From: a virus
Direction: 5' to 3' (one strand)
DNA length: 38,489 nucleotides
IMG/VR virus record: IMGVR_UViG_3300027967_000233
Span: 1-38,489 of that record
Shown: positions 1,172-12,253 of the stretch, piece after piece
Position numbering within the stretch: position 1 is the first letter of the stretch
How the letters are laid out: each line of letters opens with the position of its first letter
Position numbers and translations under genes: made by a program
The notes under the pieces: generated by a model
The model's database searches: none
Told to the model about the DNA's origin: nothing
The model's input: only the letters and a program-made list of their open reading frames with translations

Positions 1172-1684
1172 TTAATCCTCCATTCTGTTGTATATATAGA
1201 CAGACGGCAGACTAGACAAGACAAGTGTACGTGTTTCGTCAATATTCCAATTGCATTGTACTCGATTCATAAACTCGAGCTTTTGCTGAACAAACTCAGT
1301 AGTTACATTATAGTGTTCAGCTATATCTTGTATAGTCCTCATTTTATTCTCTTTAATTTGGTTTAGCAAATCGAGATCAGGAATAGCGTAGTTACAAGCC
1401 CAACGAATGGCTTGTTCCTCGCTTTTGTCTATTCTGAGCTTTTGTGAATAGGACAAGTGCTTTTTAGGTGTGTTGTCTCCAACAGAGGTGAAATAGTGTC
1501 CTAACTCTTCTATGAGTATGGTTTTATATTTCGCAGAACTGGTGTCTAGATTGTTATTCATTATAATCATAGAAACTGTATTGTCTGAGTAAAATGTACC
1601 TCCAACATTTGTTGGTAATGGGCTATGAAATAGTTTAATTTTGCAGTTTTTAATTAAGTCTTTTATGTCGTGCAGTTGCTGCAT
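1172..1684 (-). CDS. immA: ImmA/IrrE-like metalloprotease (anti-repressor)
   Basis: Likely zinc-dependent endopeptidase that inactivates the phage repressor, as ImmA does for ImmR in ICEBs1. The 170-residue protein carries EELGHYFTSVGD at about residues 59-70. This is the family's zinc-helix motif in the form common in Bacillota phages, with Glu where HExxH has its first His. A second acidic helix (KSEEQAIRWACNYAIP) follows and would supply the third ligand. AAGGTGG precedes the ATG. It is immediately upstream of int on the same strand. Its usual partner, the repressor, is about 9.5 kb away (11199-11513) beyond cargo genes, an unusual separation. A LexA box lies 17 bases upstream of the start. 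Confidence 0.85.
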   Translation of the reverse strand: MQQLHDIKDLIKNCKIKLFHSPLPTNVGGTFYSDNTVSMIIMNNNLDTSSAKYKTILIEELGHYFTSVGDNTPKKHLSYSQKLRIDKSEEQAIRWACNYAIPDLDLLNQIKENKMRTIQDIAEHYNVTTEFVQQKLEFMNRVQCNWNIDETRTLVLSSLPSVYIYNRMED

Positions 1685-1700
1685 CGAAACACCACCTTTA

Positions 1701-1714
1701 CGAACGTATGTTCT
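1701..1714. promoter_or_regulatory. LexA (SOS) box upstream of immA-int
   Basis: CGAACGTATGTTCT matches the Bacillus-type LexA/DinR consensus CGAACRNRYGTTYC at 13 of 14 positions. It lies just upstream of the immA ribosome binding site, between it and a TACAAT -10-like hexamer on the minus strand. A bound LexA here would block immA-int transcription until DNA damage. No other comparable box was found by eye in the window. Confidence 0.75.
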
Positions 1715-1761
1715 TATTGTATCATAAACATACAGAAAATGTGATTTTATCTAGTGGTAAT

Positions 1762-1797
1762 TTAATCCTGGATTAATCTAAGAGAATCTGTTATTAT
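1762..1797 (+). promoter_or_regulatory. Candidate methyltransferase promoter with overlapping palindrome
   Basis: TGGATT at 1769-1774 and TATTAT at 1792-1797 are 17 bases apart and precede the methyltransferase gene. The -35 overlaps a perfect 15-base palindrome, TTAATCCTGGATTAA (1762-1776). This could be an operator for self-repression by the methyltransferase or a controller protein. The -35 is weak (3 of 6), so promoter identity is tentative; the palindrome itself is plain. Confidence 0.4.
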
Positions 1798-1815
1798 GTT
1801 AGAGAGGTGAAAAGC

Positions 1816-3195
1816 ATGAAAGCATTGAACAAACAGGAAGTAGAGATCATTAAACAACTGAATATGAAAGTGGAAGATAATCCTGGATATTGGGATTTTA
1901 TTGATGAGAAAGTAACTGATCATATTCATGGTTTGTCGTGCTATCCTGCTAAGATGGTTCCAAAAATGCAATCAGAAATTATAGATTTATTATTGGAATT
2001 TGATCCTACAATAACTAATATTCTTGATCCGTTTATGGGTTCAGGAACAATTCCTATTGAGGGAATGTTGCGTGGACTTGATGTTATAGGTATGGATATT
2101 AATCCCTTTGCGTATTTTATTACTAAAGCAAAATCTAACGTTAGAATACTCAAAACAATTGAAGAAAAAAAAGAGCAACTGTTTAAACGGTTGGATGAGG
2201 ATAGAGTATTAAAAAATTTCCACTTTAATAAAATTGAAAAGTGGTATAGGGAAGATATAATTGAGGATTTAAAACATATTAGAGAATGTATTCTAGATGA
2301 AGAAGATGATGATGTTAGATTATTTTATTGGACAATATTCTTTGATGTGTCTAGATTAGCAAACAATTCTCAGAAGTCCACTTTTAAACTTCATATTAAG
2401 CATGAAGACGTAATTGATTCGTTTGAGTTCAACTCAAAGAAAAAATTTAAGTATGAAATTGAAGATGGTATTAAAAGCCTAAAGGAGTTTTATGATAAGT
2501 TAGGTTCTAAAAACCATTTATCCAAATTTGGAAACTATAAATCGAAAGTTAAGCTTATTTGCGGTGATTCTATTAACGAACTGAATGATTTTAGAAAATT
2601 CAAAGATAACTCAATAGACTTAGTGGTCACCTCACCACCCTACGGAGACAACCATACAACTGTGACGTATGGTCAATTTTCAGTACTTGGGCTTAAATGG
2701 ATGAATGGAGATCCGTTATTTAATGACAGTTTAAAAAGCTCAATAAATAACTTTAATGCGATTGACTCAATGAGTTTAGGTGGAAGCTTTAAAACTTTTG
2801 GAAACATAAATATAGAAGCTCTATTAAGCCGGTCTAAATCATTAGAAGATATGTTTAAAATTCTAGATGAATTAGAAGATAAGAAAAAAGTTAAAAAAGT
2901 TATGATATTCTCTCATGAGTTCGATGAGTGTTTAGAAAAAATTGCACGTAAGCTAAAACCCAATAAGTATGTTGTTATGACGGTTGGAAACAGGCGAGTG
3001 CATGATATGCTTGTACCTTTCAACAAGATTATAGAGGATCTTGGAATAAAACATAATCTTATGTTAGTTCATGAGTTTGATAGAAAAATACCTCGAAAAC
3101 GTATGGCAGAAAAAATCTCAAGGCTGGATAATCAGATGCCAGTTGAGTCGATGAAAAAAGAATTTGTTTTGATTTTGAAGAAAATAGCAGACTAA
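1816..3195 (+). CDS. DNA methyltransferase (N4-cytosine/N6-adenine type)
   Basis: Predicted AdoMet-dependent amino-methyltransferase of 459 residues. The AdoMet-binding motif I is DPFMGSGT (71-78), followed by the acidic strand end GMDINPFA near 92-99. The catalytic motif IV is TSPPYGD (272-278), typical of enzymes that methylate exocyclic amines of cytosine or adenine. Motif I lies about 200 residues before motif IV, leaving room for a target-recognition segment between them, as in alpha-group enzymes. I chose ATG 1816, spaced from AGGTG, over an in-frame GTG at 1807. It is the first gene of a three-gene plus-strand cassette and is AT-richer than the phage structural genes. No restriction endonuclease was recognised next to it. 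Target sequence cannot be predicted. Confidence 0.85.
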   Translation: MKALNKQEVEIIKQLNMKVEDNPGYWDFIDEKVTDHIHGLSCYPAKMVPKMQSEIIDLLLEFDPTITNILDPFMGSGTIPIEGMLRGLDVIGMDINPFAYFITKAKSNVRILKTIEEKKEQLFKRLDEDRVLKNFHFNKIEKWYREDIIEDLKHIRECILDEEDDDVRLFYWTIFFDVSRLANNSQKSTFKLHIKHEDVIDSFEFNSKKKFKYEIEDGIKSLKEFYDKLGSKNHLSKFGNYKSKVKLICGDSINELNDFRKFKDNSIDLVVTSPPYGDNHTTVTYGQFSVLGLKWMNGDPLFNDSLKSSINNFNAIDSMSLGGSFKTFGNINIEALLSRSKSLEDMFKILDELEDKKKVKKVMIFSHEFDECLEKIARKLKPNKYVVMTVGNRRVHDMLVPFNKIIEDLGIKHNLMLVHEFDRKIPRKRMAEKISRLDNQMPVESMKKEFVLILKKIAD

Positions 3196-3207
3196 GGTCT
3201 GCTATTT
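3182..3207 (+). terminator. Hairpin at the end of the methyltransferase gene
   Basis: An 11-base-pair perfect stem (AAATAGCAGAC / GTCTGCTATTT) with loop TAAG spans the methyltransferase stop codon. The following tract is only weakly T-rich, so it may act as a partial terminator or an mRNA 3' end. It separates methyltransferase expression from the next two genes. Confidence 0.6.
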
Positions 3208-3208
3208 C

Positions 3209-3237
3209 TTGTATTTGGAATTATTGTTATGTATTAT
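3209..3237 (+). promoter_or_regulatory. Candidate promoter of the dual-ATPase gene
   Basis: TTGTAT (3209-3214) and TATTAT (3232-3237) are separated by 17 bases, just after the methyltransferase hairpin and about 30 bases before the next start codon. Fit to the vegetative consensus is moderate. It would let the kinase-like and receiver-like genes be transcribed apart from the methyltransferase. Confidence 0.45.
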
Positions 3238-3268
3238 ATTGGTAGGAATATCGAAAGGAGATATAGTG

Positions 3269-5710
3269 ATGTCTTTTGAAGTCAATTTTACAGCTGCAGC
3301 TAGATTGATATATCAGCTAGGTGAACAGTTGATACCAAATGAAATAGTAGCTTTGTTAGAGCTTATTAAAAATGGATATGATGCTGATGCAACAAAAGTA
3401 TCTGTGATTATCGATACTGAATTCGAGTCAATTCATGGAAAAGGATTAGTTGAAATCACTGATACAGGGAATGGCATGCTTCCAAGTATTATTGAAGATG
3501 CATTCTTACAATTGTCAACCAATTTCAAAGAAGTTGAAAAAATATCTCCTTATTTTCGTAGAAGAGTAGTTGGTAGTAAAGGTGTAGGCAGACTATCGGT
3601 TCAGAAACTTGGTAACTATCTTGAAGTTATTACTCAACCACGTGTTAGTAGATTTGATGATAAGTTTCTTGCAGAAAACAGAAATGTTACGTTTGTGAAT
3701 AATGGTTATAATGAGGCAAAAATTTCGATTGACTGGGCACAATTCAAAAATTCTATTAGATTTGATGATGTTCAAGCTTCGGTTCAATATCAAAATACAG
3801 ATGTGAAAAAGTTGGGTACCACTTTAAGAATATATGGAATAAGAAACCCACAAGTATGGAAGTTAACAGGACATGATACGAATAGAATAAGAAATGAAAT
3901 TTTAAGAATGACAAATGTTTTTAATGTTCATAAGCGAGATAAGTTCAGAGTGGATATGGACATTGATGGTAAAAAGTTTAAGAATGTTGAGATAGATGAA
4001 GATCTACTTAGAGACTCTGCACATGTTACTGTAGATTTTAAGTTTAATAATTGGATTCTAGATGTGAATATAAATAGAAAAGAAAGCTACTTTAACTCAA
4101 TTATTGATAAAGAGATTAAAAAGCGCGAAGGCAAGAACTATGAACTTTTAAGTATAAACGAGGAGTGCATTTCTGAGTTAAGTTCTAAGTCTTATAGATT
4201 TGATTTTTTATCAAGTGAGTTTGTCAAAGATCATCCTAGATTTGCCAATATAAAATTTGAAGAAGTAGATGAGCTTGAAACAGACAACAATGAGATCTTT
4301 TACGCATATCCAGGTAGTTTTGAAGGGTCGATTTATGCTATTGACCGCTCAAGTTCTTCAAAGGGGTATTGGACGGATCAGATTTCAGAAGGTGCTCTAA
4401 AAAAATATAACATTAAAATAATGAAGGATTTATATAACTCATGGGATCATGCTAAAGGTGTGTATATGTTTAGAGACCAGTTCAGAATTTTGCCTTATGG
4501 TGAAGATGAATGGCTTGGTTTCAATGATTATAACCAGAGGGTGAATGATGTTATATTTAGAGGCCACAATATTTCTGGTTATATAACTATTGATGGAGAA
4601 TCAAGTGAGAGTATTCTTGAACAAACTAATAGATTAGGATTAGTAGAAAATGAGCATGGTAAGAACTTCTTTGCTGTTGTAAAAGGCGTTTTAGCTGAGC
4701 AGCTGTGTAGAGATGATGATAGTTTTAGAGAAGGATTCGAGAAAAATGTTGTCAATAATGAACTTCTAGTATCAGAAAATAACATATTGGTATTCCAACG
4801 AGCAATGAGCAAAGTAACTAAAAATGAGGTTGCTCAAGATTTGGAAAACATCATAGATAAGAAAATATTAGATTCGAATCTGATATTAGATCAACCAACA
4901 GAAGTTCTCGTTGAAATTAAAGAGAAAGTTAAAGAGTATCGAAAAGTTGAAAGTACTATTGAAACTCAATATATACAACAGGTTTATGAAAAAGAGCTTG
5001 AGCTAGAAGAAATCAGAGACGTGTATCCTCTAGTTGGCCAGGGGATGGTACTTGAGACTTTAACTCATGAGTTAAGTAGAGTTGAGTCCAACATTAAATC
5101 ATATGCAAGTTCAAGTATAAAAGAACTAAAGAAGAAAGAAGCTGATACAAATTATGTAGTTGACAGACAGAATCACATAATTGATCAAACATTCATATTG
5201 AAAAATCACCTTGAACATTTTGAACCGACATATTCAAAAGATTATAAAAATGTTGAGGAGTTTGACATTGCAGATTTTCTAATAAGGACATACTCAAAAG
5301 AAGGACCGATAAAGAACATTCTAGACCAAAATAGCATTGAGCTTAGCATTAGTGGGTACTCAGATATACTTGCAAACAAAGGTCTACTCATTACTGTATT
5401 TGACAATCTATTTCTCAACTCAGTATATTGGTTAAATCTGAATAATGATGATGAAAAAAAGATCATCATAAAAGTTGAGGAGAATGGTAAAGTTAGATTT
5501 ACAGACAATGGTCCAGGAATACATCCTGAGATTGAAAACACATTGTTTGAACCATTCAAGTCTTATAAGGTAAATGGACGTGGTCTTGGATTGTATATCT
5601 GTAAAGAAATATTAGCTTTGAATGAGGGAACGATAAGATTGTCAAGATATAGATATAAAAAAGACGATCGCATAAGAAGTTTCATTATGAACTTTAAGGT
5701 GGGTGACTAA
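3269..5710 (+). CDS. Soluble dual GHKL ATPase: Hsp90/MORC-like plus histidine-kinase-like
   Basis: An 813-residue protein with two ATP-binding modules of the GHKL superfamily. The N-terminal one has the N-box (Glu31, Asn35, Asp38 in ELIKNGYDADA), DTGNGM (65-70) and GSKGVGR (102-108), as in Hsp90, MutL and MORC-type ATPases. The C-terminal part resembles a histidine kinase: an H-box-like THELSR with His600, an N-box (DNLFLNS, 712-718), DNGPGI (746-751), an FEPF box and GRGLGL (770-775). No membrane segment or signal peptide is visible, so it should be cytoplasmic. ATG 3269 is preceded by AAAGGAG at good spacing. GHL ATPases linked to restriction-modification genes are known; phosphotransfer to the next gene's product is my inference. 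Its stop abuts the next start. Confidence 0.8.
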   Translation: MSFEVNFTAAARLIYQLGEQLIPNEIVALLELIKNGYDADATKVSVIIDTEFESIHGKGLVEITDTGNGMLPSIIEDAFLQLSTNFKEVEKISPYFRRRVVGSKGVGRLSVQKLGNYLEVITQPRVSRFDDKFLAENRNVTFVNNGYNEAKISIDWAQFKNSIRFDDVQASVQYQNTDVKKLGTTLRIYGIRNPQVWKLTGHDTNRIRNEILRMTNVFNVHKRDKFRVDMDIDGKKFKNVEIDEDLLRDSAHVTVDFKFNNWILDVNINRKESYFNSIIDKEIKKREGKNYELLSINEECISELSSKSYRFDFLSSEFVKDHPRFANIKFEEVDELETDNNEIFYAYPGSFEGSIYAIDRSSSSKGYWTDQISEGALKKYNIKIMKDLYNSWDHAKGVYMFRDQFRILPYGEDEWLGFNDYNQRVNDVIFRGHNISGYITIDGESSESILEQTNRLGLVENEHGKNFFAVVKGVLAEQLCRDDDSFREGFEKNVVNNELLVSENNILVFQRAMSKVTKNEVAQDLENIIDKKILDSNLILDQPTEVLVEIKEKVKEYRKVESTIETQYIQQVYEKELELEEIRDVYPLVGQGMVLETLTHELSRVESNIKSYASSSIKELKKKEADTNYVVDRQNHIIDQTFILKNHLEHFEPTYSKDYKNVEEFDIADFLIRTYSKEGPIKNILDQNSIELSISGYSDILANKGLLITVFDNLFLNSVYWLNLNNDDEKKIIIKVEENGKVRFTDNGPGIHPEIENTLFEPFKSYKVNGRGLGLYICKEILALNEGTIRLSRYRYKKDDRIRSFIMNFKVGD

Positions 5711-7651
5711 ATGACAACTGAGATGATTGAACACAAAATCAAAAGCCTAGTACAAATAATTAGTGAGCAAGATATTAAAAAGATCATTTGCATTGATGAT
5801 GAATGGGCAAAGCTATTGAATGAAGACATTAAACCTAATTTGGAAAGTGAAGTACACGTAAATGTTGGTGACGATATTTTTTCCGAGTTTATACGACTTG
5901 ATGTTGAACGTGAACAGATAATTGATAATGCTGGATTTACTAGCTTTCAAGAAGTTGTTGATACATTAGATTCAGATGAGGAATATTCAGATGAGGAAGC
6001 TGAGATTTTTAGAGAAATTATTGATTATTTTGGTGGGAAAATAATAAGAAGTCTTTTGTTACCAGAAGAATTAACTGCTCTGAAGTCAATCTGTGATGAC
6101 ATCAGTGACTTATTACCTGACATAACAGTACATTTTATATCAGACGAAAGTGGTAAGACTGATATATTTGGAAATGAAGTAGATTATGCAGAGTCAATTA
6201 TATTTATAGACAGATTGTATAATGAAGGTACAGTAATAGATAAAGAAAAACTGGATAATGTAACCGTACTTACTGCGGATCAAGCGGAAGTGTTGGAACA
6301 CAATGATAAATTGGTGAGCAGGGTTATTGACATATTTGAGAATGAAACAGGTTCTAGCACAAATAACATTGTAATTGTTTACTCATATGAAGGCCTAATG
6401 CAGATTGATTCACACTCAAAAAGATTAGCTTTTCTGGAGAGAAAGAACATCCATGATAAAGACACAAAGTTTTATTTGCTTTACAAACTAGATGGCTTAA
6501 AGAAAAGCGGAGACAAATTTGAGATTGCAAACACGCTAGTAGATCTAATCAATAACGTAGTGTTTAGCAATTCAATTTACAATTACATTAAATCAACAGA
6601 AGAAAGTTTCAAATCAGCAATAGACGATTTGATCAAAATTGATAAAAGTAAGTTTAATTCAGATCTTGATGATTCATTTATTGAAGGAGGATGCTTTGTT
6701 GATTATATAAATAGCTCAATTAAAAATACATATTATGATAGATTTGGGCAACTTATAACACAAAACGGAGCAATAATTAATTCCATTAGAGAGTTCTCGA
6801 AACATGAAGCTAGGCATGGTGCGCAAATCGCTGAGAAGATCAAACGTGATGAAATTAATTATAAAAATTGGTTAGATAATCACCGTGAGATCAAGATGAT
6901 CAACTCTACAAAAAATAATTCAGAGCATCAAGTGGCTGATTTTTCAGTAAACGAAAAGTACTCGAATATCGATATCGGTGATTTGATTCAATTTAAGAAT
7001 CCGCAGCATCAGGAATTGCAAACTGGGATAGTAATATCACAACAGTGTGATAGTGTAATTAGAAATCCTAGTCTGGATTCTTTAGCAAACATACCTAAAA
7101 GAATGACGAATAATTTTGATGTTTTGTTATTAAATGGCAAAGAAATATTGGTAGATAGCCCAGACATCTCTAAAATGGTGAGGAAAATATTCCCGATAAA
7201 AATTGATGATAAGTATTACCAATTCACATTGCCAGATCGATTAAACATAATTCGATTAAACTGTTCTGTCATGGATTTATGTTCATTAAACTCATCTGGG
7301 GAAGCTAAATATGACAACGATCTATTCATCAAAGCTTTAGACTTTAAGAATTATCATTCAAGGCGATATTTCCAGAAGTACTTTAGTAAATGGCCTGACG
7401 TGATGGCTCTGTTGACTAGTCCTTTTTCAGAGACTCTAAATCCTGCTGTTAAAGGAATGAATAAAACTGATAAGGCACAATGGAAAAGAACATTTATACA
7501 AGCTCAATACAAAGTGGAAATGGATGAGTTTGGGTTCAACTTAAGAAGAATATGCAGGGTGAACAAAAACTTTACACTATTAGCACTGCAGAATTATCAC
7601 AATAATGAAGCTGCTATTGGTGGAGAACCAACTGTTGCAAGCGGATGTTAA
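5711..7651 (+). CDS. Large divergent receiver-like protein, partner of the dual ATPase
   Basis: A 646-residue protein whose start codon directly follows the previous stop (TAA-ATG), so translation is coupled. The first 265 residues can be read as an expanded response-regulator receiver: acidic pair Asp29/Asp30 (IICIDDEW), candidate phosphoacceptor Asp167 (IIFIDRLY), a strand ending in Ser225 (VIVYS) and Lys259 (LLYKLDG). About 135 residues, partly acidic, separate the acidic pair from Asp167, far more than the roughly 45 usual. The C-terminal half has a conserved-looking VISQQCD segment near residues 440-447 and a beta-rich stretch; no nuclease or DNA-binding motif is evident. The receiver reading rests on motif order and the kinase-like neighbour, not on an alignment. 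Confidence 0.6.
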   Translation: MTTEMIEHKIKSLVQIISEQDIKKIICIDDEWAKLLNEDIKPNLESEVHVNVGDDIFSEFIRLDVEREQIIDNAGFTSFQEVVDTLDSDEEYSDEEAEIFREIIDYFGGKIIRSLLLPEELTALKSICDDISDLLPDITVHFISDESGKTDIFGNEVDYAESIIFIDRLYNEGTVIDKEKLDNVTVLTADQAEVLEHNDKLVSRVIDIFENETGSSTNNIVIVYSYEGLMQIDSHSKRLAFLERKNIHDKDTKFYLLYKLDGLKKSGDKFEIANTLVDLINNVVFSNSIYNYIKSTEESFKSAIDDLIKIDKSKFNSDLDDSFIEGGCFVDYINSSIKNTYYDRFGQLITQNGAIINSIREFSKHEARHGAQIAEKIKRDEINYKNWLDNHREIKMINSTKNNSEHQVADFSVNEKYSNIDIGDLIQFKNPQHQELQTGIVISQQCDSVIRNPSLDSLANIPKRMTNNFDVLLLNGKEILVDSPDISKMVRKIFPIKIDDKYYQFTLPDRLNIIRLNCSVMDLCSLNSSGEAKYDNDLFIKALDFKNYHSRRYFQKYFSKWPDVMALLTSPFSETLNPAVKGMNKTDKAQWKRTFIQAQYKVEMDEFGFNLRRICRVNKNFTLLALQNYHNNEAAIGGEPTVASGC

Positions 7652-7676
7652 AAAGACCTCTTTGAGGTCTTTTTTA
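7651..7676. terminator. Bidirectional terminator between the two cargo operons
   Basis: AAAAGACCTC pairs with GAGGTCTTTT around a three-base loop, followed by a T tract on the plus strand and by a T tract read from the minus strand as well. It overlaps the stop of the receiver-like gene and lies between convergent operons. Confidence 0.85.
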
Positions 7677-7729
7677 TTGCGCATAGAGAGTTTGCTTTCA
7701 TAAGGCTAAAATAGCATTATTGAGTTATT

Positions 7730-8935
7730 CTAAGATTTTAATTCAATATATTTTTCAGCAAGTTCAACAACTCCATACTCAGCGTTTGTCATTGAAATTG
7801 TTATATTGTTACTCTTTGAAGCTTGCATTCTCGTTTCATAAGTTGGATTAGAGTAAATAGATATGAACTTGCTAAACTCTGTAGTACCATTGGGTTGTAT
7901 TGGATAACCGAATGCTAAGCCGAATGAAAAACCAAGTGTATTACTATTAAGATTTGCAGTTCTCATTAATATGGATTTGTATTGACTAGGATCAATAATT
8001 TTAATCATTAACATTGCAGATATTAGTTCGAGCTGAACAGGTCGTCCCTTCATTGAAGGTAGTATAAATTTAAGAGTAGAATATAATCTGTCAGCATGAC
8101 GCAAAGTAAAGCTAGTAGACATTTTTATTTGCTGACACATATTATCTAGCACTCTATGTGCTGTTGGAATATTTAAATCAATTGTGCTAGTGAGCATTTT
8201 AAAATAGTTGACTACATCAGGCGATGGCAGGTGAACTTCATAATCAAAAAATTTTTTGAAATAGGAGTTACTATCGATATCACCATATACAGCTTGAATT
8301 GATTTTCCTAGCTGATGTAGATCAACAGCAACAATGAAATGTATACCCTCTATATCAAAGAAGTGTTTTATGCGTTCAAGTAGATTTATTGCAAACAAAG
8401 GTTTACAACGATCTAGTTCATCAATAAAGAAATATAGATTATTATTAGTAGTAACAAGTTGTGATAATGCAATCCGAATGTCTTTTTTCTGCTGATACGA
8501 TACTTTAAAATCTGAGTAAGCAAAGTCAGTTCCGTTCTTCATACTATCCTCTATATTTTGAATATCAGCGCCCTTCATTAGCATCCGAATTATCTCATAG
8601 AATGTAGTTTTTATGAGTTTTAATGTTTGGTCTTTGTCTGCAGAGTTTAGGTCAAGATAGTCTGAGAGCTCACCAACAATTGGAATTATTGGATCAGCGA
8701 AATGGTCATTCTCCCATGCATTAAAATATACGACCTTTTGATTTTGAGTGAGAAGTAGTGATGACCATTTTTTAAGAAATGTTGTCTTACCTGAGCCCCA
8801 AACAGAATCAATTGCTAGTACACTATTAGGAAGTGTACTCAAATGTTCAGAGAGCCTTTCGGCTATTTCTTTTCTTTTTAGAAAGTCTTCGTCAGAGAAT
8901 GATGGGAAGTTTTCGAACTGTGTTTCAAGTGTCAT
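7730..8935 (-). CDS. KAP-family P-loop NTPase
   Basis: Predicted STAND-like ATPase of the KAP family, named for Kidins220/ARMS and PifA; PifA of plasmid F excludes phage T7. The 401-residue protein has a Walker A motif SVWGSGKT (44-51), the family's YFNAWEND strand (71-78), and the hallmark Walker B FFIDELDRCKP (170-180). A sensor-like strand IVAVD follows, then a FKKFFDYEVHLP segment. Many KAP proteins carry membrane helices inserted in the ATPase domain; none is evident here, so this is a soluble form. GGAGGAT precedes ATG 8935. It is the last gene of a minus-strand operon with a small ORF, a recombinase-like gene and an Abi-like gene. A defence role is inferred from context. Confidence 0.8.
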   Translation of the reverse strand: MTLETQFENFPSFSDEDFLKRKEIAERLSEHLSTLPNSVLAIDSVWGSGKTTFLKKWSSLLLTQNQKVVYFNAWENDHFADPIIPIVGELSDYLDLNSADKDQTLKLIKTTFYEIIRMLMKGADIQNIEDSMKNGTDFAYSDFKVSYQQKKDIRIALSQLVTTNNNLYFFIDELDRCKPLFAINLLERIKHFFDIEGIHFIVAVDLHQLGKSIQAVYGDIDSNSYFKKFFDYEVHLPSPDVVNYFKMLTSTIDLNIPTAHRVLDNMCQQIKMSTSFTLRHADRLYSTLKFILPSMKGRPVQLELISAMLMIKIIDPSQYKSILMRTANLNSNTLGFSFGLAFGYPIQPNGTTEFSKFISIYSNPTYETRMQASKSNNITISMTNAEYGVVELAEKYIELKS

Positions 8936-8996
8936 GAAGCTATCCTCCTGTTCTAATAATAAAAGATCAAAGAATAATCAACTGTTAGTGGTTACT

Positions 8997-9182
8997 TTAA
9001 GAAAGTATTAACTGCACATTATCAAGATAAGTACCATTATAATCAGTACAAAATCCAACTGCTAATTTCGTAAAAGGAAACATTCGTCTATTGTAATTGA
9101 ATGTTCTATGTAGTTCAGAGAGGAAACTTGCAGTTAAACTAGCTATAGTTCCTTCAACAAAAGCCGGGATCATTTTTGACAC
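8997..9182 (-). CDS. Small ORF of unknown function in the KAP/Abi operon
   Basis: A 61-codon frame lying 13 bases after the recombinase-like gene and 61 bases before the KAP gene. I do not recognise the protein. It lacks a signal peptide or clear motif and ends with a hydrophobic strand. The start is uncertain: GTG at 9182 has no good ribosome binding site and the in-frame ATG at 9173 has only GGTG upstream. It could be a real small component, or the remnant of a longer gene. The intact frame and operon position are the only support. Confidence 0.4.
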   Translation of the reverse strand: MSKMIPAFVEGTIASLTASFLSELHRTFNYNRRMFPFTKLAVGFCTDYNGTYLDNVQLILS

Positions 9183-9195
9183 CTATTATATTAGT

Positions 9196-10200
9196 TTATA
9201 TCCATTTTGATAGTGGATGATTATGTTCAAATAACTCATTTAAGTAATTCGATTTATGTTCAAGCTGTTGAATAAGCTTATTGAGTGAAGCAGGAGTAGA
9301 GTTTGTAATAGTTAAAATAGTTTCAACAGGTGTATTTTGAATTAGAAGACCTTTTATCATGGTGTCACGAATCACCTGGAATGCTAACCCTTTACTATTG
9401 ATATTAGGGCAATTGTTGAACATTTGTTTTAAATCTTCGTTCAATGAGCTTTCTTCTATAGCCGTATACTCTCCCTTAGGTAGATCGTAATTAGAAGGGA
9501 ACAGATATGGAATATCTTGATTTCCGTAATCAGGTAGATTTGATAATGCAGCACGATAATCTAATATCATTCGCATAATTGGATCTGATAGCGGAATACT
9601 CCTAGTTTTCTTTTGGTTACCTAAAGTAATCGATCTTTCATTCTCTAATATGTAATTGGTTACAGTTGTGTGTGTGTTATAAACTAAAAAATCATTGCTG
9701 TTTTTAAAGTAATGCAAGTTACACAACTCATTTTTCTTAGCGCCACTATATAAAGCTAACTTATACAATAATACTCCTCGATTGGCGGATGAGTAGTTGT
9801 TGTTTATGTAATCCTCAATTTGATTTAGCTCTGATGATGAAAGTGTTCTGGTATCTACATTATTTTTGACACGATAATTCCATTCTGTAAATACTTTGTT
9901 ATGATTCAATCCTTCTAACTCTAGATATGTAAAAAATGATTTTACAAATGATAGTTGAGTATTTACATAACTGGGTGTATATTCTTGTTCTAGAACTGAC
10001 TGATATTTTTTAACGTGTATTCTCATAATTTCAGATAGTTTTAAAGAACTATCGTAGCTCTTTTCTATTGATCTTAAAAAACGTTGAATAGCAGATGTTT
10101 TTTGAGTTACTGATTTGTGAGGAGTTTGTTCTTTTTGAAGGTGTTTTATAAACATCTCTAATGTGTGCTTATACTCTGTTGATATTTTCTGCTTACTCAT
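9196..10200 (-). CDS. Tyrosine-recombinase-like protein lacking catalytic residues
   Basis: A 334-residue protein with the fold pattern of XerC-like recombinases: an N-terminal core-binding domain of four helices (about 5-100) and a C-terminal domain starting near residue 115. The usual TGxRxxE motif reads SGAKKNE, with Lys for the catalytic Arg. The HxLRH box reads QVIRDT, with both His lost, and the LGH and final Tyr motifs cannot be found. It is therefore probably a DNA-binding or scaffolding relic rather than a recombinase. GGAGG precedes ATG 10200. It lies 26 bases after the Abi-like gene and 13 before the small ORF, so it belongs to that operon. It is unrelated in sequence to the prophage integrase at 1-1170. 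Confidence 0.65.
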   Translation of the reverse strand: MSKQKISTEYKHTLEMFIKHLQKEQTPHKSVTQKTSAIQRFLRSIEKSYDSSLKLSEIMRIHVKKYQSVLEQEYTPSYVNTQLSFVKSFFTYLELEGLNHNKVFTEWNYRVKNNVDTRTLSSSELNQIEDYINNNYSSANRGVLLYKLALYSGAKKNELCNLHYFKNSNDFLVYNTHTTVTNYILENERSITLGNQKKTRSIPLSDPIMRMILDYRAALSNLPDYGNQDIPYLFPSNYDLPKGEYTAIEESSLNEDLKQMFNNCPNINSKGLAFQVIRDTMIKGLLIQNTPVETILTITNSTPASLNKLIQQLEHKSNYLNELFEHNHPLSKWI

Positions 10201-10226
10201 TTTTCCTCCTTAAAATTTCTCAAACA

Positions 10227-11111
10227 CTAAAGTTGGTCTACTAAAAACCTTATATTACAGGCTGCAAGGTTTAAAGCATATCTAGCATATGATTCACTCA
10301 CTGTAATAATATCTTGACCTTGCCCATGACCAGCATTTTTGTTTCGAACTGTTGGTAAACTTGATGAAAGTATTGTTTTAAGTGAAGCAAAGCTGTTTTT
10401 CATATAACCAGGAATGTATCCGTTATCAAATAGAATGTTGATGAGGCGACTTGCTGTATCCTTATCTTTGCTATAAGGATATCCCTTAATCTCACAAATT
10501 GATTTCATGGTGCTTTCAAATGCTTTGTTAGACTCACTTATGCTAGCTTCATAAGACTTATGGCGATAATGCTCAAAAGCTTTATGGTATTCGTCCTGAA
10601 CACCTTCGAATCTTGGATCAGATATTAGATGCAATACAGGCTTTACAATTTCTTTATGAATGTGCTGGGAGTCAATTTGGATAATTTCAAAACTTACTAT
10701 TTCATATCCAAAAGCGGCTTTTTTAAATCTGTAGTTTATTTCTTTAATGCCATCTTCGAGACTCATCCTAACTTGATAGTAATCAGGTACTCTGTGTTGG
10801 TGAACAAGGACATATTTAAGTGAGAGTTCAAGAATATCTAGTGAATCGCTTATGCTTGCTTTTCGAAAAAAATTAAATATCACATTATCTGTAGACTGAT
10901 AGTGATAATCAGGTAAGTTAGAAAAACCAGCTTCTCTACAGTAGCGATCATGAAGGTCATCCCACATATCCTGATCAGATACACAGTCAACTAATACATG
11001 AATAATTTGCTCTTTTAGCTTTATCGGAAATTCATCATATATATACACATCATTTGGATTGTGAACTTTTAATCGCTGAGATCTTAGTTCAAAATTATTA
11101 TTTAGACTCAT
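10227..11111 (-). CDS. Abortive-infection-like protein (STM4504/CBY_0614 type)
   Basis: A 294-residue protein. The N-terminus (DVYIYDEFP and the following helix with MWDDLHDRYCREAG) matches my recollection of the STM4504/CBY_0614 family. The C-terminal third resembles the Abi C-terminal domain: long helices around YHKAFEHYRHKSYEAS, then VRNKNAGHGQG, the characteristic RNK-HG motif, near residue 265. Such proteins are linked to abortive infection of phage. Their biochemical activity is not established to my knowledge. Two adjacent ATGs exist; I prefer 11111 because AGGAGG is only two bases from the ATG at 11114. It is first in the minus-strand cargo operon. No convincing promoter was seen in the 50 bases upstream. 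Confidence 0.75.
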   Translation of the reverse strand: MSLNNNFELRSQRLKVHNPNDVYIYDEFPIKLKEQIIHVLVDCVSDQDMWDDLHDRYCREAGFSNLPDYHYQSTDNVIFNFFRKASISDSLDILELSLKYVLVHQHRVPDYYQVRMSLEDGIKEINYRFKKAAFGYEIVSFEIIQIDSQHIHKEIVKPVLHLISDPRFEGVQDEYHKAFEHYRHKSYEASISESNKAFESTMKSICEIKGYPYSKDKDTASRLINILFDNGYIPGYMKNSFASLKTILSSSLPTVRNKNAGHGQGQDIITVSESYARYALNLAACNIRFLVDQL

Positions 11112-11162
11112 CATATCCTCCTAAACAATCGTATTTGAAATTAAAAATATTACCTTCTACAT

Positions 11163-11200
11163 AAAAAGGAAGTATATCCCACCTAGGGACATACTTCCTT
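11163..11200 (-). terminator. Repressor gene terminator
   Basis: AAGGAAGTAT (11166-11175) pairs with ATACTTCCTT (11191-11200), and TCCC with GGGA inside it, with one mismatch. Read on the minus strand it overlaps the repressor stop and is followed by TTTTT. It should isolate the cargo operon from repressor transcription. Confidence 0.85.
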
Positions 11201-11513
11201 ATTTATTCTTCTTAAGCATTTCAATCATATTCTTAACAGCAGCAATCTCTTCATCATTGAGCCCTTCAACACTTATAGTATTAAAAGAAAGTGAAAAATC
11301 TTTTTCTCTAAGATCTGTACGACCTAGTAGATAATCAGTAGATACATTGAAGTAATTAGCTAGCTTATTGAGCTTTTCTGTATCAGGATCACGCCGATCT
11401 TGTTCATACATTCCAATAGTGCTCTTAGAAACTTCTAACAAATCAGCAATGTCTGCTTGAACCATATTCTTTTCATCACGTAATTCTTTTAGACGTTGCC
11501 CAAGTGTTGCCAT
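11199..11513 (-). CDS. CI/ImmR-type phage repressor
   Basis: A 104-residue lysogeny repressor. Residues 3-60 form an XRE helix-turn-helix domain (LGQRLKELRDEKNM, then VSKSTIGMYEQ) that ends in the typical YLLGRTD. A short C-terminal helix of about 40 residues follows. There is no S24/LexA-type peptidase domain, so RecA-driven self-cleavage is not expected, and inactivation by the ImmA-like protease is the natural alternative. GGAGGTG precedes ATG 11513; an upstream GTG at 11519 would overlap this site. It is divergent from the Cro-like gene, with the operator region between them. Confidence 0.88.
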   Translation of the reverse strand: MATLGQRLKELRDEKNMVQADIADLLEVSKSTIGMYEQDRRDPDTEKLNKLANYFNVSTDYLLGRTDLREKDFSLSFNTISVEGLNDEEIAAVKNMIEMLKKNK

Positions 11514-11541
11514 AAGCACCTCCGAAGTATTTTCTTTAATT

Positions 11542-11571
11542 AGTGTACCACAATTTGTGTGTTTGTGACAA
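11542..11571 (-). promoter_or_regulatory. Repressor promoter (PRM-like)
   Basis: On the minus strand TTGTCA (11571-11566) and TACACT (11547-11542) are separated by 18 bases, upstream of the repressor gene. Operator copy 1 (11546-11562) covers its -10 and spacer, so the repressor or Cro could control this promoter. Confidence 0.65.
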
Positions 11572-11652
11572 ATACACTAAAAGTGTGCATTAGGTTGCAA
11601 AGCACACAATAAGTGGTTATACTGAGTTTATACAAGACCACAATAAGTGTGC
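11546..11652. promoter_or_regulatory. Operator array, four copies between repressor and cro
   Basis: Four 17-base sites resemble the perfect palindrome at 11850-11866: 11546-11562, 11572-11588, 11602-11618 and 11636-11652. The common core is CACA-ATA-TGTG; each copy keeps at least one good half-site (GTGTG or CACAC). Their centres are 26, 30 and 34 bases apart. In addition TTAGTGTA (11540-11547) and TACACTAA (11573-11580) form an 8-base inverted repeat around copy 1. Copy 3 fills the spacer of the cro promoter exactly. Confidence 0.75.
11595..11623 (+). promoter_or_regulatory. cro promoter (PR-like)
   Basis: TTGCAA (11595-11600) and TATACT (11618-11623) are 17 bases apart, a near-consensus vegetative promoter directed at the Cro-like gene. 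Operator copy 3 occupies the spacer and copy 4 lies between the start point and the ribosome binding site. Confidence 0.8.
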
Positions 11653-11664
11653 AGGAGGTAAGCT

Positions 11665-11850
11665 ATGCTTTCTGAAATAAGAATGAATCTTGGCCTAACA
11701 CAAGAAGAGATGGCTAGTGATCTCAACATTTCAAAATCATATTATCAAAAGATTGAAAATGGGGAGCGATCACCTAGTTTTGATTTTCTTAGAAAGTTCA
11801 AGAAGAAGCATCCAATGCAATCAGTCGATGCAATTTTTTTTGATGATTAG
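11665..11850 (+). CDS. Cro-like helix-turn-helix regulator
   Basis: A 61-residue XRE-family protein made almost wholly of one helix-turn-helix domain (LGLTQEEMASDLNISKSYYQKIENGERSPS). It is divergent from the repressor, as Cro is. GGAGG precedes ATG 11665. Its last base is the first base of another operator copy, so the protein may bind on both sides of its own gene. It likely opens the early plus-strand transcription unit and antagonises the repressor. Confidence 0.85.
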   Translation: MLSEIRMNLGLTQEEMASDLNISKSYYQKIENGERSPSFDFLRKFKKKHPMQSVDAIFFDD

Positions 11851-11866
11851 CACACAATATGTGTGC
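11850..11866. promoter_or_regulatory. Fifth, perfect operator copy downstream of cro
   Basis: GCACACAATATGTGTGC has 7-base perfect arms around ATA. It begins at the last base of the cro stop codon and ends just before the ribosome binding site of the next gene. It is the best match to the array upstream and may act as a roadblock or looping site. Confidence 0.75.
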
Positions 11867-11881
11867 AGATAGGAGTAGACT

Positions 11882-12253
11882 TTGATTTCAACACCAATAT
11901 CAAATCAACTTGAACGATTATTGAAAGTCAGTGACAAGCTGAGTGAAGAAGGTAATGTTGACGCACTATGTAAAGTTACTGACAAGATTGTTGATTTAAC
12001 CAGAGAACTTAATCAGAAAAGGTTACTAAGTAAAGAAGAAGCAATCCAATACACAGGGTTTACACAAACTGCTTTTGACAATCTAGTTCGTGACAAGAAG
12101 ATTAAGTGTGTACGTCCGAGTGGCCATAAAGGAAAGTCATATTTCTCTGTAAAAGCACTTGAAGAGTATATTCAGCAGCAAGAAATGCAGTCAATTATTA
12201 TACAGGATATTGAAAAGTTGGCTCCAACGGGATCGTATGTTCCAGTCACATAA
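11882..12253 (+). CDS. HTH_17/excisionase-like DNA-binding protein
   Basis: A 123-residue protein. Residues 1-45 are helical. Residues 46-98 form a winged-helix domain of the MerR/excisionase type: LLSKEEAIQYTGFTQTAFDN, then a wing (RPSGHKGKSYF) and ALEEYI. Candidates are an excisionase or an early regulator. TTG 11882 is the start, with AGGAG six bases upstream. It follows the fifth operator, so it is probably under repressor control along with cro. It is followed by the hairpin-rich non-coding segment. Confidence 0.65.
   Translation: MISTPISNQLERLLKVSDKLSEEGNVDALCKVTDKIVDLTRELNQKRLLSKEEAIQYTGFTQTAFDNLVRDKKIKCVRPSGHKGKSYFSVKALEEYIQQQEMQSIIIQDIEKLAPTGSYVPVT

What the first reader, a model, noticed from the sequence alone, without database searches (positions are those of the whole stretch)
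1816..7651. Methyltransferase, dual GHKL kinase-like ATPase and receiver-like protein form a possible modification-linked phosphorelay defence system
Three plus-strand cargo genes lie between phage immunity genes: a DNA methyltransferase (DPFMGSGT, TSPPY), a soluble protein with an Hsp90/MORC-like ATPase at one end and a histidine-kinase-like module at the other, and a receiver-like protein whose start abuts the kinase stop. No restriction nuclease is recognised. GHL ATPases near restriction-modification genes are established; a methyltransferase tied to a cytoplasmic two-component-style relay is not a system I can name. Inference: methylation marks self DNA, the MORC-like clamp senses foreign DNA, and phosphotransfer arms the third protein.
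Basis: partly seen in the sequence, partly recalled or inferred. Interest (0 to 1): 0.85.

Follow-up and report, generated by a model that had tools for sequence, protein, structure and literature searches.

The report
Phage-borne methylase-kinase-receiver gene cassette
A temperate phage carries a recurring three-gene unit in which a DNA methylase sits beside a double-ATPase histidine kinase and a receiver protein instead of a restriction enzyme, which suggests a restriction system switched on by protein phosphorylation; the general arrangement has been predicted before, but this branch and its likely toxin-like output domain have not been described as far as I could find.

Summary
Window 1816-7651 encodes a SPPY-type DNA methylase, a protein with a paraMORC-type GHKL ATPase at the N-terminus and a histidine-kinase core at the C-terminus, and a receiver protein whose ATG abuts the kinase stop.

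Relatives confirm a unit. His600 is invariant in 61 kinases and Asp167 in 73 adjacent receivers. The same trio, with the same methylase subfamily, recurs in 12 loci from several phyla, phages and plasmids, with changed gene order and correlated divergence (Mantel r 0.86-0.93). Elsewhere this methylase is paired with an MvaI/BcnI endonuclease, never with both, so the kinase-receiver pair seems to stand in for the nuclease.

The window proteins do not match those Pfam models and form a separate lineage.

New here: the receiver's C-terminal domain. A confident model of a homologue's domain most resembles MazF/CcdB-fold toxins (moderate scores, no sequence similarity), which hints at a phosphorylation-gated toxin. 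Defence activity, phosphotransfer and methylation are untested.

The parts
1816..3195 (+). DNA methylase (SPPY type, predicted N4-cytosine), same subfamily as the methylases paired with MvaI/BcnI endonucleases
   Evidence: Pfam N6_N4_Mtase E 6e-10, PADLOC MTase_II E 1e-77; relatives beside MvaI/BcnI endonucleases; N4-cytosine is inferred from SPPY and from established knowledge of MvaI/BcnI methylases
3182..3207 (+). terminator-like hairpin overlapping the methylase stop
   Evidence: one such site found, 2.0 expected in shuffles, so weak
3269..5710 (+). dual GHKL sensor histidine kinase
   Evidence: H600 invariant in 61 relatives; profile matches ThkA (3a0r) E 5e-43 over the DHp+CA region
3347..3643 (+). 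N-terminal HATPase_c_3 (paraMORC-type) ATPase; E31, N35, D38, D65, G67, G69 conserved
5066..5068 (+). His600, predicted phosphorylated histidine (H-E/D motif)
   Evidence: invariant 61/61 and 11/11 in the close clade
5384..5644 (+). C-terminal HATPase_c kinase ATP-binding domain
5711..7651 (+). receiver protein with C-terminal 'CD' domain
5795..5800 (+). D29-D30, receiver acidic pair
   Evidence: 11/11 in the close clade
6209..6211 (+). Asp167, predicted phosphoacceptor (S225 and K259 complete the receiver site)
   Evidence: invariant in 73 relatives; S/T225 11/11, K259 10/11
6917..7639 (+). C-terminal 'CD' domain (GD...QxCDxxxR), MazF/CcdB-like fold by model of a homologue
7650..7674 (+). hairpin with T-rich arm directly after the receiver gene
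   Evidence: read from the sequence; not flagged by the scan

Best explanation
It is a restriction-modification-like defence cassette carried as cargo by a temperate phage. The methylase marks self DNA (predicted N4-methylcytosine). The kinase senses incoming unmarked DNA or a foreign DNA complex through its N-terminal MORC-like ATPase clamp and autophosphorylates His600. The phosphate passes to Asp167 of the receiver. Phosphorylation releases or dimerises the receiver's C-terminal MazF-fold domain, which takes the place of the restriction endonuclease, most likely as a toxin or nuclease that stops phage growth. Shown here: architecture, invariant catalytic residues, gene linkage, correlated divergence, replacement of the endonuclease in the same methylase subfamily, and the fold of a homologue's output domain. 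Inferred: the sensed signal, phosphotransfer, the output activity and anti-phage function.
For: His600 and Asp167 invariant across very divergent relatives. Receiver and kinase profiles match solved receivers and kinases, including both partners of the ThkA-TrrA complex 3a0r. The trio is conserved in 12 loci over Bacteroidota, Actinomycetota, Pseudomonadota and phages/plasmids, in three gene orders. Correlated divergence, Mantel r 0.868, 0.926, 0.856, p 5e-5. Kinase clade of 11 (support 98) coincides with the methylase subfamily. 0 loci with both kinase-receiver and MvaI/BcnI endonuclease, against 14 and 8 with one (p 0.003). CD-domain model pLDDT 81.5, nearest solved folds all MazF/Kid/CcdB/CptN. 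Neighbouring defence-type genes.
Against: No experiment exists for this lineage that I could find. The fold match is moderate (Z 6.9, Foldseek E 0.01) and a profile comparison with MazF found no sequence similarity, so toxin catalysis is not shown. Many wider relatives have short receivers of about 210 aa without the CD domain, so the output domain is not general to the whole family. A possible terminator separates methylase and kinase. The exclusivity counts are small and not corrected for relatedness. Co-divergence may partly follow shared transfer of the whole unit.
Confidence: 0.5

Rival explanations
1. The kinase-receiver pair is a regulator that tunes expression or activity of the linked methylase or of restriction enzymes elsewhere, as Bellieny-Rabelo et al. 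suggested, and is not itself the restricting arm.
For: Proposed in PMC8011034; two-component systems normally regulate; some relatives lie beside complete R-M sets with Vsr and endonuclease (L004).
Against: No DNA-binding output domain is recognised; in this methylase subfamily the pair occurs instead of, not with, the endonuclease; the window has no endonuclease to regulate.
Confidence: 0.2
2. The cassette is mainly a selfish or superinfection device: the methylase protects the prophage DNA and the kinase-receiver is a dormant toxin released if the methylase is lost, stabilising the element.
For: Carried on phages and plasmids; output domain resembles toxin-antitoxin toxins; R-M systems are known addiction modules (established knowledge).
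Against: Does not by itself explain the MORC-like sensor; cannot be told from defence by sequence.
Confidence: 0.2
3. The kinase works only as a GHKL clamp with its C-terminal half as a dimeriser, and no phosphorelay takes place.
For: Single GHKL proteins without receiver accompany the same methylase in other loci (L010, L202, L203, L207, L210, L211).
Against: His600, all kinase ATP-site boxes and the receiver's D29/D30/D167/S-T225/K259 set are kept.
Confidence: 0.08

Closest known systems
HEF_HK (PF19191) / Response_reg_2 (PF19192) two-component-like system beside R-M genes (Bellieny-Rabelo et al. 2021, PMC8011034)
   Same: Same three-part order methylase - dual GHKL kinase - receiver; kinases homologous over full length (hhalign probability 100, E 2e-47); receivers of like size, and the iterated CD-domain profile finds all six genuine PF19192 receivers fetched.
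   Different: Neither Pfam model matches the window proteins; methylase is SPPY type, not C5; kinase about 810 aa rather than about 990; the kinases form separate clades; full-length receiver profiles barely align.
Type II R-M systems of MvaI/BcnI type
   Same: Same methylase subfamily.
   Different: Endonuclease and HTH controller absent, replaced by kinase and receiver.
paraMORC/MORC ATPases of R-M operons (Iyer et al. 2008, PMC2292703)
   Same: N-terminal GHKL ATPase, linkage to methylases; proposed DNA looping role.
   Different: Here fused to a complete histidine-kinase core and paired with a receiver.
PorX (REC - helical bundle - PglZ) and Detocs (kinase-receiver defence; from memory)
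   Same: Receiver coupled to an enzymatic or effector output; the family receiver profile aligns with PorX-like chains (8ted, 7pv7).
   Different: Output domain here is not recognised as PglZ and is not the Detocs effector; no methylase in Detocs (from memory).

Membership tests
HEF_HK / Response_reg_2 system | kinase carries HATPase_c_3 + DHp-type His helix + HATPase_c | tested here: met
HEF_HK / Response_reg_2 system | kinase matches PF19191 | tested here: not met
   no match at E<=10; 4 of 61 relatives weakly
HEF_HK / Response_reg_2 system | receiver matches PF19192 | tested here: not met
   no match at E<=10; 1 of 73 relatives at E 0.06
HEF_HK / Response_reg_2 system | kinase and receiver genes adjacent, methylase nearby | tested here: met
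HEF_HK / Response_reg_2 system | homology of the kinases outside the ATPase domains | tested here: met
   hhalign 763 columns, E 2e-47
Canonical two-component pair | phosphorylatable His with N, G boxes; receiver D-D, D, S/T, K | tested here: met
Canonical two-component pair | phosphotransfer | not testable with these tools
   needs purified proteins
Type II R-M system | DNA methylase | tested here: met
Type II R-M system | cognate restriction endonuclease | tested here: not met
   no MvaI/BcnI-like ORF in the window and no nuclease domain recognised in the trio
MazF/PemK toxins | MazF-type fold | tested here: inconclusive
   model of homologue L011: best Z 6.9 over 101 residues; the 50 listed entries are MazF/Kid/CcdB/CptN-type
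MazF/PemK toxins | sequence similarity to PF02452 | tested here: not met
   hhalign probability 0.8; no Pfam match
Detocs | kinase, receiver and Detocs-type effector proteins | not tested
   no Detocs sequence was fetched; considered from memory only

The most novel reading that the evidence does not exclude
A restriction system in which the nuclease has been replaced by a phosphorelay: a MORC-like DNA clamp kinase reads methylation status and phosphorylates a receiver whose MazF-fold domain is a toxin activated by phosphorylation, a toxin control mode without an antitoxin that has not been described to my knowledge.
Probability: 0.25. Interest if true: 0.88.

Novelty: new variant of a known kind. 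Interest (0 to 1): 0.62.

Why it matters
If the reading holds, bacteria and phages use two-component signalling, known for gene regulation, as the decision step of self/non-self DNA discrimination, with an effector domain of toxin-antitoxin type. It also gives a function and a test to a family that was predicted in 2021 and, in the literature I could search, has not been examined experimentally, and it explains how a methylase can be kept in mobile elements without a restriction enzyme.

Tried and rejected
AlphaFold of the whole receiver protein (A12, 9 sequences) gave pLDDT 46 and was not used for fold search; only its strand order was noted. PF19191/PF19192 do not match the window. Profile comparison of full receivers with PF19192 receivers aligned only 28 C-terminal columns, so receiver homology to that family rests on the iterated CD-domain profile, which could drift; all hits of that profile at E<0.01 were nevertheless receiver ORFs or fragments or fusions of them. 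Profile comparison with MazF found nothing. Foldseek against viral models found no clear match. tblastn of the receiver in phages and plasmids found nothing. Single-protein scans of viral contigs with the receiver and kinase failed; alignments worked. A motif count of methylases within 4 kb of the kinases gave 47 of 79, an undercount, since it missed L114, which has one. A sample of 398 genomes of one phylum held only two strong kinase matches, which were not followed. The full-paper searches found no experimental work on this system; subscription papers and preprints were not searchable.

Full report
What is there. The window is a 38.5 kb IMG/VR virus record with a gpA-type terminase and an E-type capsid gene; the terminase is nearest, at 51-55%, to phages of Faecalibacterium, Exiguobacterium and Paenibacillus, so the host is probably a member of Bacillota. 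At its left end lie an integrase (1-1242 -) and an ImmA-like protease (1172-1684 -), then the trio on the plus strand, then on the minus strand a KAP NTPase, a second tyrosine recombinase, an AbiJ-like protein and a repressor-like HTH gene. The interval 1500-12000 has 31-34% G+C against 34-42% (mostly 36-41%) in the rest of the phage, as expected for acquired cargo.

The three proteins. The methylase has DPFMGSGT and TSPPY. Its kinase neighbour has two GHKL ATPase domains, HATPase_c_3 at residues 27-125 and HATPase_c at 706-792. The third protein has no family match on its own. With 72 relatives it forms a profile that matches solved receiver domains with E 1.9e-10, and 18 of 73 members match Pfam Response_reg individually. 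In the close clade of 11, D29, D30, D167 and S/T225 are present in 11 of 11 and K259 in 10 of 11, the five-residue site of a working receiver. Across 61 kinases H600, N713, N717, G770, G772 and G774 are invariant. The kinase profile matches solved histidine kinases over the His helix and ATP domain with E 5e-43.

The unit is conserved. Kinase relatives were collected from viral contigs, genomes and plasmids. In 72 of 79 distinct loci an ORF follows directly; 65 of the 72 start with a receiver-type motif against 53 of 482 control ORFs. The window's own type, with the same methylase subfamily and a receiver of 500-680 aa, was found in Rhizobium and Hymenobacter plasmids, Mucilaginibacter, Chitinophagaceae, Vibrio, Nocardioides, a Corynebacterium-like genome and phages. 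Gene order differs: methylase-kinase-receiver in most, methylase convergent to receiver-kinase in Nocardioides L015 and in L018, and kinase-receiver-methylase in L104, the closest relative. Distances between the three proteins correlate (Mantel r 0.868, 0.926, 0.856; p 5e-5), and the kinases of these loci form one clade with support 98. Whole-unit transfer would give the same correlation, so this shows co-inheritance rather than contact.

What the pair replaces. The nearest plasmid methylases were read in context. Those of Macrococcoides, Liquorilactobacillus, Lactococcus, Methanobacterium and Parabacteroides stand beside an annotated MvaI/BcnI endonuclease, and Geobacillus beside an ORF that matches the profile made from them. 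An archaeal genome locus, L019, has one too (Pfam MvaI_BcnI E 8e-53). In 35 loci (two contigs are represented twice) of this methylase subfamily, counted by profile, 14 have the kinase (12 with complete receiver, 2 cut by the contig end), 8 have the endonuclease (one split), 6 have a single GHKL protein and no receiver, and none has both kinase-receiver and endonuclease. MvaI and BcnI methylases make N4-methylcytosine (established knowledge), and SPPY fits this, so the window methylase is predicted to make N4-methylcytosine.

The output domain. Behind the receiver lies a helical stretch and a C-terminal domain with GD...QxCDxxxR. A profile of it, iterated over 9002 ORFs of all loci, found 42 ORFs at E below 0.01, all of them receivers next to the kinases or fragments and fusions of them, including the genuine PF19192 receivers. 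A model of the domain from L011 (18 sequences) reached pLDDT 81.5 and pTM 0.81. The first 14 Foldseek rows are MazF toxins (best E 0.010, probability 0.97), and the 50 entries listed by VIA-align are MazF, Kid, CcdB or CptN-type, best Z 6.9 with 3.1 A over 101 of 113 residues. Z below 8 can mean only a common arrangement, and hhalign against PemK/MazF sequences gives probability 0.8. The fold is therefore a lead to a toxin-like output, not a proof. The window's own domain was not modelled alone.

Relation to known work. Bellieny-Rabelo et al. 2021 reported kinases with HATPase_c_3 + HEF_HK + HATPase_c linked in 91.6% of regions to Response_reg_2 receivers near methylases and R-M genes, and suggested control of R-M. 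Six genuine PF19192 loci were fetched: C5 methylase, kinase of 987-1012 aa, receiver of 542-634 aa, all with a similar CD box. The kinases are homologous to the window's over the full length, but the window lies outside both Pfam models and in a different clade. It is therefore a separate lineage of the same kind of system. Iyer et al. 2008 had already tied MORC-like ATPases to R-M operons and proposed DNA looping. A GHKL-nuclease fusion (VcSduA) that protects against phages is known (PMC12137116).

Mechanism and verdict. The best reading is a methylation-gated phosphorelay that arms a toxin-like receiver in place of a restriction enzyme. The linkage, catalytic residues, replacement pattern and homologue fold are shown. 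DNA sensing, phosphotransfer, toxicity and phage defence are inferred.

Noticed in passing
window 7730-8935 (-): KAP-family P-loop NTPase (Pfam E 3e-35), matches the PADLOC candidate defence family PDC-S20 (E 1e-75); lies next to the trio in opposite orientation.
   Followed up: partly
window 10227-11114 (-): AbiJ_NTD4 + DUF7014 protein (STM4504/CBY_0614 family, PADLOC PDC-S32), a further candidate abortive-infection gene in the same cargo interval.
   Followed up: partly
window 9196-10200 (-): Second tyrosine recombinase (XerC/D-like) inside the cargo interval, besides the phage integrase at 1-1242; the cargo may have its own mobility.
   Followed up: no
L010, L202, L203, L207, L210, L211: The same methylase subfamily beside a single GHKL protein of about 620-780 aa with no receiver: a third type of partner, possibly like BbrUII/HgiDII restriction enzymes.
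   Followed up: partly
L017:7563-9830: One open frame joins the methylase (without its last 60 residues) directly to the CD domain; kinase and receiver are missing. Looks like a deletion remnant.
   Followed up: partly
L123:11919-12176: The receiver's C-terminal part continues in another frame, so this copy is interrupted or the contig has an error.
   Followed up: no
L003:7563-9359: A receiver homologue is annotated 'cytochrome P450' (WP_243520915.1), apparently a wrong product name.
   Followed up: no
L151, L153, L156, L159, L161, L163-L167: Wider relatives have receivers of only about 210-230 aa without the CD domain, most with a methylase-like ORF upstream; where their output lies is unclear.
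   Followed up: no
L008:3054-6275: A kinase-receiver pair stands next to a PAPS-reductase-family gene, which recalls DNA phosphorothioation; the mark may not always be methylation.
   Followed up: no
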